NCBI RefSeq assembly: GCF_004801305.1
Contig: NZ_SSOD01000003.1
Location: 1 to 64,000, forward strand
DNA from: Pseudothauera rhizosphaerae
Lineage (GTDB): Bacteria; Pseudomonadota; Gammaproteobacteria; Burkholderiales; Rhodocyclaceae
DNA length: 64,000 bases
Direction of reading: 5' to 3'
In this document: positions 52,522 through 61,416 of the stretch, piece after piece
Position numbering within the stretch: position 1 is the first letter of the stretch
How the letters are laid out: every line of letters begins with the position of its first letter
Program-made: the position numbers and the translations under genes
The notes under the pieces: model-generated
The model's input: the letters and a program-made list of their open reading frames with translations, nothing else
Told to the model about the DNA's origin: nothing
Database searches by the model: none

Positions 52522-53196
52522 ATGAGACTGTCCGCCGATTTCCACTTTCTGGCCGAAGAGCACCGGGTGCTGGTCGGCCGCCTCGGCCGCGTCCAGCAGC
52601 GTTGCAGCGATCTGCTGGCCAGCCAGGCGGCTGAGATCGAGCGCCTGCGGGGCGAGGTCATGCGCCTGCGCGCCCATGTGATCACCCGCGACACCGCGCT
52701 CGCCTATGCGCGCGAGGATCTGGCCGCGCTGCGTGCCGCCATTCCGGGGCTGCCGCGGCGGCTTGCGCTGGCGCGGCGGGTGGAAGCGCTGATGCAGCGC
52801 GTGCAGGAACTGATGCGGGAGCGGCGTGCGCTGCGTGCGGCTGCGGGTTCCACGGCGGCGGTACCGCTCATGCGGGCTACCGCGCTCGCCGATCTGCGCG
52901 AAAAAGCGGTGCTGTGCATCGGCCGCGACGAATCCGGCGCCCACGTCGCCCGGCGCATGGTGGAGATGGCCGGTGGCCAGTTCCTCCACCACACGGCCGA
53001 CGAGGCGGACGACCATGCCGCGCTGGAGGCCAGCCTGGTGGCCGCCGACCTGGTGATCTGCCAGTCCGGCTGCGTCGGCCACAACGCCTACTGGCGCGTG
53101 CAGGACCACTGCCGGCGTACCGGCAAGCAGTGCGTGCTGGTGGAGCAGCCGCGCGCGCTGGAGGTTCTGCGGCAGCGGGCGGCGGAGCGCGGCTGA
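52522..53196 (+). CDS. DUF2325 protein, Fur-associated
   Basis: A 224-aa protein. The N-terminal ~110 residues are coiled-coil-like. The C-terminal ~95 form a DUF2325 domain: VLCIGRDESGAHVARRMVE, then LVICQSGCVGHNAYWRVQDHC and GKQCVLVEQP. The Cys residues suggest a metal or redox role. A Fur box upstream and the convergent feo operon tie it to iron. GGGAGGGG precedes the ATG. Confidence 0.8.
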   Translation: MRLSADFHFLAEEHRVLVGRLGRVQQRCSDLLASQAAEIERLRGEVMRLRAHVITRDTALAYAREDLAALRAAIPGLPRRLALARRVEALMQRVQELMRERRALRAAAGSTAAVPLMRATALADLREKAVLCIGRDESGAHVARRMVEMAGGQFLHHTADEADDHAALEASLVAADLVICQSGCVGHNAYWRVQDHCRRTGKQCVLVEQPRALEVLRQRAAERG

Positions 53197-53232: not shown

Positions 53233-53829
53233 TTAGCGCACACAGGCGGTGGCGATGTCGATGAGCTCGTCCGCCAGCAACCAGGCGCGCTCGCTGCCTG
53301 CGCCCGGCGCGGGCAGGTAGATTTCCATGCCCAGGTAGCGGAAGGCGGCGTTTTCCCACACTTCTCCCGGTATCACCGTGACCGCGTGGGGCGGTGCGTG
53401 TCCCGCCTCGTGGGGCGTTTTGGCCGCTGCGGCGAAGGGTACGATCCGCGTGGCGCGCACCGTGTCGTCGGGATGGCGGCCGATGGTGGCGGCGAGACAG
53501 GTGCGCAGGGCCTCGTCCGCGCAGTAGAGCTCGGCACTGGGGCCGTGCCGGTCCTGCCCGGTGTGCAGGTCCACCAGCAGGCGGTAGTGCCCGACCACGT
53601 GGGGCAGGAGCTGGAGGTAGAGCTCCCGGTGCAGCATGGCGTGATGGAAGCGCTGGTCCGGGCGTGGGCGGCGTCCGGTGAGGCCGTCCGGAATGGCCAG
53701 CACGTCGACGGCCCCGCGGTCGACGCGGGCGGCGACGGCTTCGCCGAAAGGCAGTTCCTCGCGGTGGATGCCGACGACGAGCAGGACCGGCGCGGCGGCG
53801 GATACGGCCTGCCGGTTGTCCGCGTTCAT
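53233..53829 (-). CDS. M14/AstE-like putative zinc hydrolase, last gene of feo operon
   Basis: A 198-aa protein. GIHREE (His-x-x-Glu) and LVDLHTG (His) recall the zinc ligands of the M14/succinylglutamate desuccinylase-aspartoacylase group. GEVWENAAF near the C-terminus could hold the catalytic Glu. The start overlaps feoC by 4 bp (ATGA), so it belongs to the operon. No such gene is a standard Feo component; the assignment is a motif-level guess. Confidence 0.55.
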   Translation of the reverse strand: MNADNRQAVSAAAPVLLVVGIHREELPFGEAVAARVDRGAVDVLAIPDGLTGRRPRPDQRFHHAMLHRELYLQLLPHVVGHYRLLVDLHTGQDRHGPSAELYCADEALRTCLAATIGRHPDDTVRATRIVPFAAAAKTPHEAGHAPPHAVTVIPGEVWENAAFRYLGMEIYLPAPGAGSERAWLLADELIDIATACVR

Positions 53830-54047
53830 CTGCCGGCCCACTCGTACAGGGTCAGCGTGGCCGGGTCGCACTTGCAGCACCCGCCGGGGCAGGGGGCGCC
53901 CTCCAGGCGCCGCACCTGACCCTTGCGTTCCAGCAGCTTGAGCATGCCTTCGAGGGCATCCGGCGTGGTGTCCAGCGCGCGGGCGAGATCCGCCAGGCTC
54001 GCCCGTCCGTGGCTACGCAGATGGTCGGTGAGCCGGGACAGGATCAT
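53826..54047 (-). CDS. feoC: FeoC-like winged-helix protein
   Basis: A 73-aa protein with a winged helix (LADLARALDTTPDALEGMLKLLERKGQVRRL) and a Cys cluster CPGGCCKC (Cys53, 57, 58, 60) that may bind an Fe-S cluster. FeoC tunes FeoB stability or expression. It follows feoB by 12 bp. Confidence 0.88.
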   Translation of the reverse strand: MILSRLTDHLRSHGRASLADLARALDTTPDALEGMLKLLERKGQVRRLEGAPCPGGCCKCDPATLTLYEWAGR

Positions 54048-54059
54048 GATCGGTTCTCC

Positions 54060-56384
54060 TCATGCGCCGTGGGGCACCGCCGCTGGCGCGCGTGGATCGC
54101 GGCGGCCGTAGCGGCGCAGCGCCAGCACGGCTGCGGCGAAGGCGACGAGCACGGCGGCGCTCCACGCCAGCGAGCTTGCCGGATGGGCGGCGAAGGTGGC
54201 GAGCTGGTAGTACAGCGTGGCGAAGCCGTAGGCGAGCCCCGTGGTCCAGGCTGCCACGAAGACGGTCCAGCGCAGGCCGGATTCCTGGTAAATGGCGGCG
54301 ACGGCGGCGGCGCAGGGGAAGTACAGCAGGATGAAGAGAAGGTAGGCGAAGGCGCCTACCGCGCCGTCGAAGCGCGCCGCCATGGCGCCGAAGGTGTCGG
54401 CCGAGGCGCCCTGTTCCTCGGACGCGGCCTCCATGTCGGCCGCGTCGCCCACACCGAGGCCGAGCGGATCGGCCCAGGCGCCCAGCGCATCGACCAGGTT
54501 GGCCGGGATGGTGGCGAAGGCTTCCGCGATGCCGGCGGCGAGATCGAAGGGTTCCTCCTCGCCGGCTTCACCCGCGTCGGCCGCGGCCAGCGAGGCGTAG
54601 GTCGCCGCCAGCGTGCCCACCACCGCTTCCTTGGCCAGCACGCCGGTGAAGATGCCCACCGTGGCCGGCCAGTTGTCCTCGGTCAGGCCCATGGGCGCGA
54701 AGGCCGGCGCCGCGCCGCGTCCCACCGCGGCGAGCACGGAGCGGTCGCTGTCCTCGTTGCCGAAGCTGCCGTCGGTGCCGATGGCGTTGAGGAAGTTCAG
54801 TACCAGCACCATGGGCACGATGACCCGTCCGGCGCGGAAGATGAAGCTCTTCAGGCGGTCCCAGGTGTGGATCAGGATGCCCTTGACGGTGGGCAGGTGG
54901 TAGGGCGGCAGCTCCATGATGAAGGGCGTGGCCTCGCCCTGCAGCAGCGTGTTCTTCAGCACCAGCCCGGTGAGCACCGCCACGACGATGCCGATCAGGT
55001 AGAGGCCGAACACCACGTTCTGTCCGCCGAGGGGGAAGAAGGCGGCGGCGAACAGGACGTACACCGGCAGGCGCGCGCCGCAGGACATGAAGGGCGCCAT
55101 GGCGATGGTCATCAGGCGGTCGCGGCGATGTTCCAGGGTGCGCGTGGCCATGATGGCCGGCACGTTGCAGCCGAAGCCGACGATGAGCGGCACGAAGGAC
55201 TTGCCCGGTAGCCCCACCCAGCGCATGAAGCGGTCCATGACGAAGGCGGCGCGCGCCATGTAGCCGGAGTCTTCCAGCACGGAGAGGAAGAGGTAGAGGA
55301 AGCCGATGACCGGGATGAAGGTGGCCACCACCTGCAGCCCGCCGCCGATGCCCTGGGCGAGCATCACGGTGAGCCAGGCGGGAGAACCCAGGCCGTCCAG
55401 CAGTTCGGCGAAGCCGTCCACCAGCAGCACGCCGGAGAACTGGTCGAAGAAGTCGATGAAGGCGCCGCCGATGTTGATGGTGAACATGAACATCAGGTAC
55501 ATCATGGCGAGGAAGATGGGGATGCCGAGCGCCCGGTTGAGCACCACCTGGTCGATGCGGTCGGTGAGGTCGCTGGCAATCCGCCCGGAGTGCTTCACCG
55601 CCGTGCGCGCGACGCGGTTGGCGAGCCCGTAGCGGGCATCGGCGACGAGGATGTCCACGTCCTCACCCAGCGTCTCGCGTTCGCGCCCGGCGGCTTCCGC
55701 CGCCGTCGGGCCGGCCGCGGCGGTGGCGAGGCCGTCGCCTTCCAGCAGGCGCACCGCCAGCCAGCGCGCGGCGGTGCCGTGCCTGGCGGCCGCGTCGACG
55801 AGCAGCGGGGCGAGTGTGGCGACGGCCTTTTCCAGGGCCTCGCCGTAGGCGACGTCGACGCCGGATTGCGGGCGTTCGGCCGCCGCCTTGAGGATCGCAG
55901 CCTTCAGCGCGTCGATGCCGGTGCCCTCGGAGGCGACCACCGGCACCACCGGGCAGCCCAGTTTGCGGGCCAGCGCCTCGGCGTCCACCTGCATGCCCTT
56001 GGACTCGGCCACGTCGGTCATGTTGAGCACCACCAGCAGCGGTACGCGCATTTCGGCGAGCTGGGTGGTGAGGTAGAGGTTGCGTTCCAGGTTGGAGGCA
56101 TCGACGATGTTGACGACGAGATCGGCCTCCGCCGCGTGCACGTAATCGCGGGCGAGCTTTTCGTCGAGGGAGACCTCGGCGTCGGCCACGTCCAGGGAAT
56201 AGGTGCCGGGCAGGTCCACGACCTCGAAGCGTACGTCGCCCGCGCGGTACTCGCCGCTCTTGCGCTCCACGGTGACACCGGGCCAGTTGCCCACGCGCTG
56301 GCGGGCGCCGGTCAGGGCGTTGAACAGGGTGGTCTTGCCGCAGTTGGGGTTGCCGACGAGGCCGAGCGTGTAGTGGGTTTTCAT
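54060..56384 (-). CDS. feoB: Ferrous iron transporter FeoB
   Basis: A 774-aa Fe2+ transporter with an N-terminal G domain: GNPNCGKT (11-18), DLPGTYSL (57-64) and NMTD (121-124), then a GDI-like spacer and two Gate domains with about eight helices ([31 protein letters not shown]). The ATG at 56384 shares a base with the feoA stop (TGATG). It takes up Fe2+ under low oxygen. Confidence 0.95.
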
Positions 56385-56611
56385 CAAAGTTTCTCCACTT
56401 TCAGCGCGTCGGCCTCGTCCTTGCGCAGGGACAGCGCGAAGCCGCGGACGCGGATTTCCACCGGGTCGCCCATGGGCGCGACGCGGGTCACGCTGAGCTC
56501 CGCGCCGGGGGTCAGCCCCATGGCCAGCAGCTTGCGGCGGTAGGCGCCGCCTTCGGCGAGAAAGCCGAGCACCCGCGCCCGGTCTCCCACCGACAGTTCC
56601 TTGAGTGTCAT
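56384..56611 (-). CDS. feoA: FeoA protein (second copy)
   Basis: A 75-aa SH3-like protein ([45 protein letters not shown]) that supports FeoB activity. It overlaps feoB by one base and the first feoA by four. Confidence 0.92.
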
Positions 56612-56885
56612 GACTGCTTACTCCTTTGCGAAGATTCGTCGGCGGCGCCTTCGGCCGCCACCAGGATTCGTTGGGCCATGCCGGCTCCGAGGGCGAAGCG
56701 CGCGGCTCCGCGGGCGACCACCAGCCCGCCGCCTTCGCGCTGGCGCACCGCGAGTTCGCAGCCCACGTTGATGCCCAGCTCCGCCACGCGCAGCACGAAG
56801 GCGCTTCCGCCGCGGATGGCGATCACGCGCACGGTGGCGCCTTCTTCGGCGAGGCTGAGGGGGAAGGTCGGGCGGGAGGGAGCGG

Positions 56886-56889
<4 letters not shown>
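56608..56889 (-). CDS. feoA: FeoA-like protein (first copy)
   Basis: A 93-aa SH3-like protein with an N-terminal extension ([54 protein letters not shown]). It is diverged from the second copy. The start overlaps the stop of the P-type ATPase gene (ATGA), which joins the feo and ferrosome-like genes in one transcript. Confidence 0.88.
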
Positions 56890-59021
<2,132 letters not shown>

Positions 59022-59031
59022 GCACCGTCCG

Positions 59032-59478
59032 TCAGGCGTCGCCGTGGCGTTCCGCCTCCACCTCGGCCTTGATGTCGGCCATCTGTTCCTTCATTTCCTC
59101 GATGCCGCCGGCGAGCCCCGAATAGAGCTTGATCCCGGCCTTGACCAGCTTGCCGCGCAGTTCCTCGTCGGCGAGCACCCAGGCCGCCGCCGCGCCGAGC
59201 AGCGCGCCGAGCAGGAACTGCTCGGTATGGCGCGAGCGCAGCATGGCCGGCAGACCTTGCAGGAAGCCCGCGTCGAGGCCGGCAAGACCCAGGTCTGGCC
59301 CCATGCCTGCGGTCATGCCGGGACCCGTCCCGGCGCCCATGCCCGGCGCCGCACCCATGCCTGCGGCCTGTCCGGCGTCATAGCCGGCACCCGGCCAGCC
59401 GCCGTACTGCTGCGCCATGCCCCAATCGTTCGGCGCGCCGTTGCGGCGGCCGTGCTTCTTATGCTTCTTGCCCATCAT
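59032..59478 (-). CDS. YtxH-like ferrosome-cluster protein
   Basis: A 148-aa protein: a basic start (GKKHKKHGRRN), a long Gly/Met/Ala-rich stretch (~15-65), a membrane segment (EQFLLGALLGAAAAWVLADEE) and a charged helix (LRGKLVKAGIKLYSGLAGGIEEMKEQ) of YtxH type. It is probably a membrane-associated ferrosome component. AGGAG precedes the ATG at 59478; a second ATG follows at once. Confidence 0.7.
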   Translation of the reverse strand: MMGKKHKKHGRRNGAPNDWGMAQQYGGWPGAGYDAGQAAGMGAAPGMGAGTGPGMTAGMGPDLGLAGLDAGFLQGLPAMLRSRHTEQFLLGALLGAAAAWVLADEELRGKLVKAGIKLYSGLAGGIEEMKEQMADIKAEVEAERHGDA

Positions 59479-59797
59479 GCTTCTCCTGAGAACGCTGCGC
59501 CGCGTCGCGCAGCATGCGTTCGATGACGAATACGCCGGCCGCACCCACCGCCGCGGCGACCAGCGCACCGGTGTAGTCGCGCCGTTCGATGGCCGCCGCC
59601 GCTCCGGCTCCGGCGGCCAGCGCCGTGCCGCCCTGCAGGGCGTAGCGCAGGACGCGCCTGACCTCGGCGGAGGAGGGGGAACGCTGCCCGCCTTGGATCG
59701 CGCTGAGGCAGGCCGAGGCGACGAAGCCGCGCACGAAGCTGCGTTCGATGACCGGCGTGCCGGCTACGGCCGGCAGGGTTCTGACGGGATAGTTCAC
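59459..59797 (-). CDS. Small membrane protein of the ferrosome-like cluster
   Basis: A 112-aa protein with two or three hydrophobic, Ala/Gly-rich segments (ALQGGTALAAGAGAAAAIE, ALVAAAVGAAGVFVIERML). The start is GTG after GGAGG and overlaps the previous stop (GTGA); its end overlaps the YtxH-like gene by 20 bp. No known family was recognised; the role is inferred from position. Confidence 0.65.
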   Translation of the reverse strand: MNYPVRTLPAVAGTPVIERSFVRGFVASACLSAIQGGQRSPSSAEVRRVLRYALQGGTALAAGAGAAAAIERRDYTGALVAAAVGAAGVFVIERMLRDAAQRSQEKHDGQEA

Positions 59798-60102
59798 GAT
59801 GCCTCCTTACCGGTCTGCGGCGCGGCGGCGGCAGGCTTGGCCTTCGGCTTGCGTTTGGGCGCAGCCTTGCGGGGCGCGGCAGTGGGCTTGACGGCCGGTG
59901 CGGCTTCCGCCTCGGGTGAGGCTTCGAGCTTGCTGCGCGCCCGCGCGGAGGCGCTTTCGATGGCGGCGAGGCTGGAGGCGGTCGCCTCGCGCAGACGCTG
60001 TTGCGCCTTGTCCAGTCCGGCGCGGGTCTTGTTGGTCTTGAGCAGATTCACGGCGACGAGGCCGGTCAGCAGACCGGCGGCGAAGGGGATGAGCGGCAAC
60101 AT
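59794..60102 (-). CDS. Membrane-anchored Ala/Pro/Lys-rich protein
   Basis: A 102-aa protein: an N-terminal hydrophobic helix (LPLIPFAAGLLTGLVAVNLL), a short charged helix, then a Lys/Pro/Ala tail (PRKAAPKRKPKAKPAAAAP). Such tails can act as linkers or bind polyphosphate or DNA. It overlaps the next gene by 4 bp and has AGGAG before the ATG. Family unknown. Confidence 0.65.
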   Translation of the reverse strand: MLPLIPFAAGLLTGLVAVNLLKTNKTRAGLDKAQQRLREATASSLAAIESASARARSKLEASPEAEAAPAVKPTAAPRKAAPKRKPKAKPAAAAPQTGKEAS

Positions 60103-60103
60103 T

Positions 60104-60790
60104 TCAGTTCTCCTTTCGAGTCCGGCGGAGTTTGCCTTTCAGGGCATAGGCACCTGTGCCCCCGACTGCCATGCCGGCGAGCAGGGCGGGGTGGACGTGG
60201 CGCAGCAGGGTACCGAGCAGTCCGGCCTGCGGCCCCAGTTGCGCGAGCGCCCGTTCGATGAAATCCGACAGCGGCCCGTGGCGCACGTAGGCCTGCTGCG
60301 GCGGTATGCCATGGGCGACGTGATAGCGCTCCTGGGCCCAGGCTTCGGCCGCCGCCTGCTGGAAGGCGGGCAGATGGTTCTCCAGGGTGGCGGCCTGCAA
60401 CTGCTCGAACACCCGGCGCACGTCCGGGTTCGGCACCTGGGCGAGGAGGTAGGTGTAGAGCCGCAGGTTGGCCACTTCGCCCGCCACTGCGCGCTGACAG
60501 TTGGCGAGCCAGCTCGGCGACACCGTCGTTTCCGTCGGGAAGGGGTCCAGCGGACGCGGAATGCCGTAGCGCTCGCACACCCCGCCGAGCGCGGCGATGT
60601 GGCGCTCCTCGGCGTTGGCGATGTTGGCGAACGGCGGCCGCGGCCCGAAAGATTCCACCACGCGCTTGTAGAAGGCGCGCGCGGCGTATTCGTCGAAGAG
60701 GGCGATGCGCACGGCCTGGTGCAGCACCGGGAAGGGCGCGCGCGGATCGACGATGCGCATGCGCAGGATGGATTCATCGTAATTGAGCAT
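60104..60790 (-). CDS. DUF2202-like ferritin-fold protein
   Basis: A 228-aa helical protein. ALFDEYAARAFYKRVVESFG and FANIANAEERHIAALGGVCERYGI are the two halves of a DUF2202/ferritin-like di-iron site (Glu, Glu-x-x-His). A later EVANLRLYTYLL helix completes the bundle. The C-terminal ~30 residues include a hydrophobic segment (HPALLAGMAVGGTGAYAL) and a basic end, so it may be membrane-tethered. It overlaps the HMA-like gene by 17 bp. Confidence 0.7.
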   Translation of the reverse strand: MLNYDESILRMRIVDPRAPFPVLHQAVRIALFDEYAARAFYKRVVESFGPRPPFANIANAEERHIAALGGVCERYGIPRPLDPFPTETTVSPSWLANCQRAVAGEVANLRLYTYLLAQVPNPDVRRVFEQLQAATLENHLPAFQQAAAEAWAQERYHVAHGIPPQQAYVRHGPLSDFIERALAQLGPQAGLLGTLLRHVHPALLAGMAVGGTGAYALKGKLRRTRKEN

Positions 60791-61118
60791 GGACGATCTC
60801 CCGATACTTGGCGCGCAGGATGTCCTCGAGAATGCCCGCCGCCTCGGAGCCGGTGCCGGCCAGGAAGTCCGTCCACGCATCCATCGGAATGACGGCGGGG
60901 TCGTACTCGACCGTGCACGAGCGGGCCAGCAGGTTCAGCCGTATCGACCGGACGCCTTCCGCGGCCTCGATCACCCGGTGCAGGTGGCGGACCTGGGTCT
61001 CGCTCGGGCGGGGCAGTTCCGGCCCGGTCTCGGCGAGCTTGAGGCGGATGCGTCCGCGCAGGTGGTGGACGACTCGCACACAGGTGGCGACGGCGCGCAC
61101 GTGCTCAAAGCCGTCCAT
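60774..61118 (-). CDS. HMA-like protein, first gene of the ferrosome-like operon
   Basis: A 114-aa protein with a ferredoxin-like HMA fold: VVHHLRGRIRLKLAE, IEAAEGVRSIRLNLLARSCTVEYDP. The CxxC copper motif is absent, like the degenerate HMA of the adjacent ATPase. It may pass iron to FezB or anchor the complex. The ATG at 61118 gives DGFEHVRAVATCVRVV as N-terminus. Confidence 0.7.
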   Translation of the reverse strand: MDGFEHVRAVATCVRVVHHLRGRIRLKLAETGPELPRPSETQVRHLHRVIEAAEGVRSIRLNLLARSCTVEYDPAVIPMDAWTDFLAGTGSEAAGILEDILRAKYREIVHAQLR

Positions 61119-61402: not shown

Positions 61403-61416
61403 TTGATCGGTATCAA
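61403..61416. promoter_or_regulatory. FNR box
   Basis: TTGATCGGTATCAA is a perfect match to TTGAT-N4-ATCAA. It is 285 bp upstream of the HMA-like gene and 115 bp upstream of the NCS1-kinase gene. The downstream -10 candidate is better on the minus strand, so anaerobic activation of the fez-feo unit is favoured. Confidence 0.8.

What the first reader, a model, noticed from the sequence alone, without database searches (positions are those of the whole stretch)
53233..61118. Putative ferrosome (fez) operon fused to a feo operon in a nitrate-respiring betaproteobacterium
Six tightly packed genes (HMA-like, DUF2202 ferritin-like, Ala/Pro/Lys-rich anchored, small membrane, YtxH-like, P1B-6 ATPase) match in number and type the six-gene fez operons described in Rhodopseudomonas and Shewanella. 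The ATPase stop overlaps feoA, so ferrosome and Fe2+ uptake genes appear as one eleven-gene unit. Seen: gene order, overlaps, SCA motif. Known: FezB is P1B-6 and drives iron granule organelles. Inferred: this organism forms ferrosomes.
Basis: partly seen in the sequence, partly recalled or inferred. Interest (0 to 1): 0.95.

Follow-up and report, generated by a model that had tools for sequence, protein, structure and literature searches.

The report
Iron-organelle gene cluster beside iron-uptake genes
A nitrate-breathing bacterium carries a set of genes that very probably builds membrane-bound iron-storage compartments, placed in line with the genes that import iron, and it includes an extra ferritin-like protein not seen in the two best-known relatives compared.

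Summary
In detail: eleven minus-strand genes at 53233-61118, no gap over 12 bp: HMA-like, ferritin-like, anchored protein, small membrane, YtxH/DUF5132-like, P1B ATPase, feoA, feoA, feoB, feoC, one unassigned gene. The ATPase is P1B-6-type: DYSCALK and HN motifs, 40% identical over most of its length to homologues of Rhodopseudomonas palustris XCP and a Shewanella, whereas five other P1B ATPases of this genome have CPC. HMA, YtxH and (weakly) membrane proteins also have relatives there, so a fez-type identity is well supported. Ferrosome formation is untested.

Two corrections. The fez-feo junction is not special: in R. palustris XCP the six genes start inside feoC, and feoB lies within 6.5 kb of fezB in 21 of 105 loci, about 0.5 expected. 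The gene set is not that of R. palustris: ferritin-like and anchor genes stand where R. palustris has a 103-aa gene and a second HMA. The ATPase sits in a 14-row clade sister to the R. palustris/Shewanella group. The ferritin-like protein, predicted as a ferritin-type four-helix bundle, is the real news: a possible iron-oxidising or iron-holding subunit.

The parts
60774..61118 (-). HMA-like protein, 114 aa, 'HHLRGRIRLKL' and no CxxC motif
   Evidence: HMA 0.0015, HMA_2 0.0017, below cut-offs; clade profile hits R. palustris XCP 4e-12 and Shewanella 5e-13; reverse search 1.8e-8
60104..60790 (-). ferritin-like (DUF2202-related) protein, 228 aa, with a weakly hydrophobic C-terminal helix that may be a membrane anchor
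   Evidence: weak Pfam; AF2 four-helix bundle, pLDDT mostly above 90 over residues 11-160, C-terminal helix low confidence; Foldseek to MJ0754 6.4e-4, ferritins weaker; E34, E61, H64, E105, H139 present; no TM segment over the hydropathy threshold in the window protein, one in the Arcobacter relative
59794..60102 (-). anchor protein, 102 aa: N-terminal hydrophobic helix, then an Ala/Pro/Lys-rich basic tail
   Evidence: hydropathy; same N-terminal segment in 13 of 13 clade members; tail net basic in 9 of 11 counted, L025 neutral, L044 acidic, L027 and L032 not counted
59459..59797 (-). small glycine/alanine-rich membrane protein, 112 aa
   Evidence: profile hits Shewanella 3e-4, R. palustris 0.002; all 14 hits at E<1e-3 lie near fezB; R. 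palustris protein finds this ORF first of 725, 4.9e-4
59032..59475 (-). YtxH/DUF5132-like membrane protein, 147 aa
   Evidence: profile hits R. palustris 1e-12, Shewanella 4e-12
56886..59021 (-). FezB-type P1B-6 ATPase, 711 aa
   Evidence: DYSCALK and HNGST motifs; tree; 40% identity to R. palustris XCP and Shewanella homologues
56608..56889 (-). feoA, first copy
   Evidence: FeoA 2.5e-13; start overlaps ATPase stop by 4 bp
56384..56611 (-). feoA, second copy
   Evidence: FeoA 4.5e-23
54060..56384 (-). feoB
   Evidence: NF007105 3.3e-260
53826..54047 (-). feoC
   Evidence: FeoC 2.4e-17
53233..53832 (-). unassigned 199-aa protein, recurrent in fez/feo loci (label aspA in my scripts is a guess)
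   Evidence: no match; relatives in 8 of 105 loci, the window's own included
61403..61416 (.). perfect FNR-type palindrome TTGATNNNNATCAA, centre about 292 bp before the HMA start and about 120 bp before the likely start (61531) of the divergent gene
   Evidence: (0.01 expected in the window); that the motif is an FNR site is recalled

Best explanation
A fez-type (ferrosome) cluster of a distinct sub-lineage, in line with a feo operon. FeoB brings Fe2+ into the cytosol under low-oxygen conditions; the small membrane proteins (YtxH-like, glycine-rich, anchor) and the CxxC-free HMA protein shape and mark an internal membrane; FezB pumps Fe2+ from the cytosol across it into a lumen; the ferritin-like protein, perhaps tethered by its C-terminal helix, holds or oxidises iron at that membrane; the basic anchor tail could bind (poly)phosphate. 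Shown: genes, order, motifs, homology, recurrence of the feo link; ferritin-like fold as a prediction. Inferred: organelle, transport direction, roles of the small proteins, anaerobic control, co-transcription.
For: P1B-6 traits: D-x-[SA]-C-x-x-K in 103 of 104, HN in 101 of 104 and no CP[CHS] in 103 of 104 locus ATPases, while the five next-best P1B ATPases of this genome all have CPC and no HN; HN as a P1B6 trait is stated in PMC9374683 (passages). Tree: window with R. palustris and Shewanella homologues in a 100-row clade, SH-aLRT 97, apart from the CPC paralogues and a DUF1490-linked ATPase (quick method). Homologues of three small proteins. R. [quoted passage not shown] the XCP cluster has six genes. 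feoB within 6.5 kb in 21 of 105 loci, about 0.5 expected. FNR-type box: perfect in 4 of 95 upstream stretches, 0.07 expected; at most one mismatch in 11 of 95, 2.1 expected.
Against: I know of no ferrosome shown for any member of this clade (listings name none; most of those papers were not read). The clade branches outside the R. palustris/Shewanella group; FezB of Desulfovibrio magneticus and C. difficile were not at hand, so its place relative to the other proven ferrosome makers is open. The anchor has no detectable relative in R. palustris and the membrane-protein match is weak. The genome has three ordinary ferritin-family genes, so fez is not its only iron store. No good Fur-type box stands before the operon: best 7 mismatches of 19, overlapping the FNR-type box.
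Confidence: 0.72

Rival explanations
1. A plasma-membrane metal-efflux platform like PacL/CtpC of mycobacteria: small anchored proteins scaffold a P1B ATPase that exports excess Fe2+ (or Zn2+/Mn2+), with no organelle.
For: Same general plan: P1B6-like ATPase with HN motif plus small proteins with one TM helix, a repeat region rich in Ala and a tail (PMC9374683, abstract in listing and passages); that paper also links DUF6110 proteins to P1B6 ATPases and suggests platforms for them. Rhodococcus and Deinococcus plasmids carry DUF1490 or DUF6110 partners beside related ATPases; the Deinococcus ATPase lacks CPC and has HN like FezB and was too short to enter the tree.
Against: No DUF1490 or DUF6110 match in the cassette; the Rhodococcus ATPase has CPC and falls outside the FezB clade; three partner genes are relatives of R. 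palustris fez genes; feo import genes in the same run fit storage better than export.
Confidence: 0.18
2. A decayed or re-purposed fez-like cluster that handles iron at the membrane (detoxification after FeoB influx) but no longer forms granules.
For: Different gene set from the R. palustris six-gene operon, separate clade; three ordinary ferritin-family genes present.
Against: The window's reading frames are intact; the order of five genes is kept in 12 of 13 family loci read and on Azospirillum and Arcobacter plasmids.
Confidence: 0.1

Closest known systems
fez operon of Rhodopseudomonas palustris (RPA2333-2338 in CGA009; strain XCP locus L116 used here)
   Same: HMA, membrane, YtxH-like and FezB genes in the same relative order; feoA-feoB-feoC directly attached; six genes
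   Different: R. palustris XCP has a 103-aa membrane protein and an HMA_2 gene after FezB, no ferritin-like protein, and feo lies upstream; the window has ferritin-like and anchor genes and feo lies downstream
fez-type cluster of an uncultured Shewanella (L127), standing in for S. putrefaciens, which was not retrieved
   Same: HMA, membrane, YtxH-like, FezB; FNR-type site upstream with one mismatch
   Different: a 257-aa YtxH-like protein in place of ferritin-like plus anchor; divergent second HMA; no feo found in the 16.7 kb read
Six-gene cassette on Arcobacter plasmid p133 (L045)
   Same: HMA, DUF2202 ferritin-like with a clear C-terminal hydrophobic helix, N-terminally anchored protein, membrane, YtxH, ATPase, in the same order
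   Different: ATPase 45.5% identical over 701 columns; anchor match weak (E 0.003); no feo in the 10 kb of L045 or the 17.7 kb of its twin L048
PacL1-CtpC metal efflux platform
   Same: P1B6-like ATPase with small TM scaffold protein
   Different: DUF1490 partner and CPC motif; zinc export; a DUF1490-linked relative falls outside the FezB clade

Membership tests
fez (ferrosome) cluster | P1B-6 ATPase FezB | tested here: met
   motifs, tree, 40% identity over 696 and 681 columns
fez (ferrosome) cluster | small partner genes related to those of R. palustris or Shewanella fez clusters | tested here: met
   HMA and YtxH clearly, membrane protein weakly; anchor and ferritin-like not
fez (ferrosome) cluster | iron granules that depend on the genes | not testable with these tools
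   needs microscopy and a deletion
fez (ferrosome) cluster | genes suffice for granules in a foreign host (recalled from Grant et al. 2022, paper not held) | not testable with these tools
   paper not held
R. palustris six-gene fez type | same six gene families | tested here: not met
   no match to the 103-aa protein, no separate HMA_2 gene in the cassette; ferritin-like and anchor instead; a second HMA elsewhere in the genome was not sought
Desulfovibrio-type fez | FezC, a DUF4405-related cytochrome, in the cluster | tested here: not met
   no DUF4405 match among the proteins scanned; four hits elsewhere in the genome, two over cut-off
PacL/CtpC efflux platform | DUF1490/DUF6110 partner and CPC in TM4 | tested here: not met
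ferritin-like superfamily (for the 228-aa protein) | four-helix bundle | tested here: met
   predicted only: AF2 and Foldseek, two matches at E<=0.001, target TM 0.59 and 0.61, rmsd 7.5-8.4; no solved relative by sequence at E below 0.2
ferritin-like superfamily (for the 228-aa protein) | complete diiron site (two ExxH motifs plus two Glu; recalled) | tested here: inconclusive
   E34, E61, H64, E105, H139 present in the window, kept in 10, 13, 11, 13, 13 of 13 sequences; the second ExxH glutamate is missing; site geometry not measured
DUF2202 (Pfam) | score over the curated cut-off | tested here: not met
   16.5 bits against 22

The most novel reading that the evidence does not exclude
A sub-type of ferrosome with its own ferritin-like subunit: an iron organelle in which a membrane-tethered metal-binding four-helix protein, encoded in one run with FezB and FeoB, oxidises or nucleates iron as it is pumped in. 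It occurs in the window's family, on Arcobacter plasmids and, at other positions in the cluster, in Chromatiales and Thiotrichaceae.
Probability: 0.35. Interest if true: 0.75.

Novelty: new variant of a known kind. Interest (0 to 1): 0.55.

Why it matters
How iron is turned into mineral inside ferrosomes is open; the redox part named in the passages I could read is the cytochrome FezC (PMC11334425, passages). A ferritin-like protein inside fez clusters gives a concrete, deletable candidate. The recurrent fez-feo linkage suggests that uptake and storage are regulated together, and plasmid copies suggest that such clusters can move between bacteria.

Tried and rejected
Ferrosome primary papers (Grant 2022, Pi 2023) are not held, so features from them are recalled. 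Paper searches for Rhodopseudomonas + Shewanella + ferrosomes and for DUF2202 + ferritin found nothing. Search of the class at E<=1e-110 found 2 of 369 genomes, the window's own included, too strict to be useful. G531 was taken for an alphaproteobacterium as a new centre; its class (48 genomes) is most likely Magnetococcia, since G654 of that class has a contig identical to one titled Magnetococcales. A greedy gene caller failed on high-GC loci and was replaced by profile searches. Iterated profiles for HMA and anchor drifted into ATPase and YtxH proteins, so homology claims rest on the non-iterated tests. A Fur box before the operon was looked for and not convincing, though better Fur-like sites stand before several gammaproteobacterial clusters in the same call. 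Solo DUF2202 genes: of 12 plasmid records other than Arcobacter I looked at 2, and neither has fez neighbours, so the family as a whole is not fez-specific. Terminator scan: one minus-strand candidate inside feoB at 54360-54341; 5 in all against 3.4 expected, no promoter pattern found; not informative.
Full report
Check of the observation. Eleven minus-strand genes between 61118 and 53233 follow each other with junctions from 17-bp overlaps to a 12-bp gap. The feo part is plain: two FeoA, FeoB, FeoC. The ATPase is a heavy-metal P-type ATPase (TIGR01525, 3.8e-140). The five small proteins match Pfam only below curated cut-offs or not at all, so naming them needs context. No promoter pattern was found and the terminator count is within chance. 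narG, narH, narI and a NarK-like gene support a nitrate respirer.

Is the cassette real? In the window's own family 14 of 150 genomes have an ATPase match at E<=1e-85. I read the surroundings of 13 (the contig of G479 is too short). Twelve, the window included, carry HMA, anchor, membrane, YtxH and ATPase genes in the same order; the thirteenth, G420, has a more distant ATPase behind feoA-feoB. Five of the twelve have the ferritin-like gene in second place, three have feoB within 6.5 kb. Outside the family the order recurs on plasmids: Azospirillum (with a second HMA and without the ferritin-like gene) and Arcobacter (all six, annotated DUF2202 and YtxH).

Comparison with known fez organisms. 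They include R. palustris XCP (L116) and an uncultured Shewanella (L127), not S. putrefaciens itself. In L116 the order is feoA, feoB, feoC, HMA (118 aa), 103-aa protein, membrane (160), YtxH-like (199), FezB (721), HMA_2 (126): six genes after feoC, the first starting inside feoC. [quoted passage not shown] that XCP's six are their orthologues is inferred from number and kind, CGA009 letters were not compared. PMC6879726 (passages) lists rpa2333-2338 among metal-transport genes lowered in low light.

Homology tests. Profiles built only from the window's clade (13 loci; 5 for the ferritin-like protein) were run on all ORFs of the other loci. HMA hits R. palustris at 4e-12 and Shewanella at 5e-13 (it also hits the ATPase N-termini); YtxH 1e-12 and 4e-12; the membrane protein 0.002 and 3e-4, with all 14 of its hits at E<1e-3 lying near fezB; the anchor nothing in R. 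palustris and 0.07 in Shewanella; the ferritin-like protein nothing in either. In reverse, against 725 window ORFs, the R. palustris HMA finds the window HMA at 1.8e-8 and its membrane protein finds the window's first at 4.9e-4; its 103-aa protein finds nothing (best 0.56), its HMA_2 only the window HMA at 0.006, and the Shewanella 257-aa protein the YtxH frame at 0.07. FezB is 40% identical over 696 and 681 aligned columns to the R. palustris and Shewanella ATPases.

P1B-6 test. Of 104 locus ATPases (one of the 105 loci gave none over 500 aa), 103 have D-x-[SA]-C-x-x-K where copper and zinc pumps have CPC, 103 lack CP[CHS] and 101 have HN near the C terminus. The HN misses are three reads broken by a stop or frameshift (L035, and L055 and L109, which are one contig); the motif miss is L064, an over-long frame that probably shifted my search window. 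The five other P1B ATPases of this genome that I read have CPC and no HN. In the tree (quick method, SH-aLRT only, long outgroup branches flagged by the program) the window sits in a 14-row clade of its family, Azospirillum and Arcobacter (99), sister to 86 rows that hold R. palustris, Shewanella, Vibrio, Chromatiales and magnetococci (95); together they form a 100-row clade (97). Three short reads and one short outgroup were left out of the tree. Two pairs of loci are the same contig (L049/L133, L055/L109), so 105 loci are 103 places.

feo linkage. feoB lies within 6.5 kb of fezB in 21 of 105 loci: downstream in 6, upstream on the same strand in 11, upstream on the other strand in 4. With two feoB per 4.5 Mb about 0.53 would be expected (a rough figure, and neighbouring species are not independent). 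Different sides in different clades point to repeated joining.

Ferritin-like protein. Relatives turned up in 14 of 105 loci, the window included. In nine the gene is on the fezB strand and at most 1.2 kb upstream; in two 1.4-2.4 kb downstream; in one 3.9 kb upstream; in two it is on the other strand. AF2 with 8 sequences gives mean pLDDT 81.8, pTM 0.71, with helices 22-48, 54-75, 94-118, 122-159 mostly above 90 and an uncertain C-terminal helix. Foldseek: MJ0754 at 6.4e-4 and 9.4e-4, then bacterioferritins and ferritins at 8e-3 and weaker; only two matches reach 0.001 and rmsd is high. By sequence alone no solved structure comes under E 0.2, the best being MJ0754 too. The window keeps E34, E61, H64, E105, H139; across 13 of the 14 sequences (one fragment dropped) these are kept in 10, 13, 11, 13, 13. 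Against the reading: L025, L026 and L029 of the same family lack E34, and L025 and L029 also lack H64 (read); the second ExxH glutamate of ferritins is missing throughout. The fold is a prediction and the ferroxidase role a proposal.

Regulation. A perfect FNR-type palindrome at 61403-61416 is the only one in the window (0.01 expected). It is nearer to the divergent gene, a protein with a histidine-kinase domain, and may serve that. The same-genus relative L024 has only a 3-mismatch site. Across 95 upstream stretches (105 loci less one duplicate and nine too short) perfect boxes occur in 4 against 0.07 expected, near-perfect in 11 against 2.1 (first-order resampling), so anaerobic control of part of the family is likely even if this box is shared or serves the neighbour.

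Verdict. A fez-type cluster of a separate lineage with an extra ferritin-like protein, joined to feo: a new variant of a known kind. That the organism forms ferrosomes is likely but unshown.

Noticed in passing
L049, L050, L052, L053, L133 (L133, the same contig as L049, is titled Magnetococcales): FezB-type clusters in genomes of a class that is most likely Magnetococcia; L052 has feoA-feoB-feoC directly upstream. Ferrosome-type genes in a magnetosome-forming lineage would be worth a look.
   Followed up: partly
L046 (Cereibacter azotoformans plasmid pORIO2): fez-type genes on a plasmid typed conjugative, between TonB-dependent (siderophore) receptors and near an NnrS gene, with feoA nearby and a perfect FNR-type box upstream.
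   Followed up: partly
window 52522-53196 (+) and L045 5152-5484 (-): DUF2325 protein gene next to the cassette in the window and, by annotation, on the Arcobacter plasmid; the window protein has relatives in 14 of 105 loci, its own included.
   Followed up: no
window 53233-53832 (-): Unassigned 199-aa protein behind feoC; relatives in 8 of 105 loci, no Pfam or NCBIfam match.
   Followed up: no
L034 (G420): A distant P1B-6-like ATPase (39% identical) behind feoA-feoB in the same family, without the small partner genes.
   Followed up: no
L035 (G247): feoA-feoA-feoB-feoC followed by a FezB-type ATPase gene that reads as broken in this assembly.
   Followed up: no
L145 (Deinococcus peraridilitoris plasmid pDEIPE02): ATPase with HN and without CPC beside a DUF6110 gene: a P1B6 ATPase with another kind of partner.
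   Followed up: no
L102: Contig titled Synechococcaceae cyanobacterium carries a Competibacter-like fez/feo region; probably a binning error.
   Followed up: no
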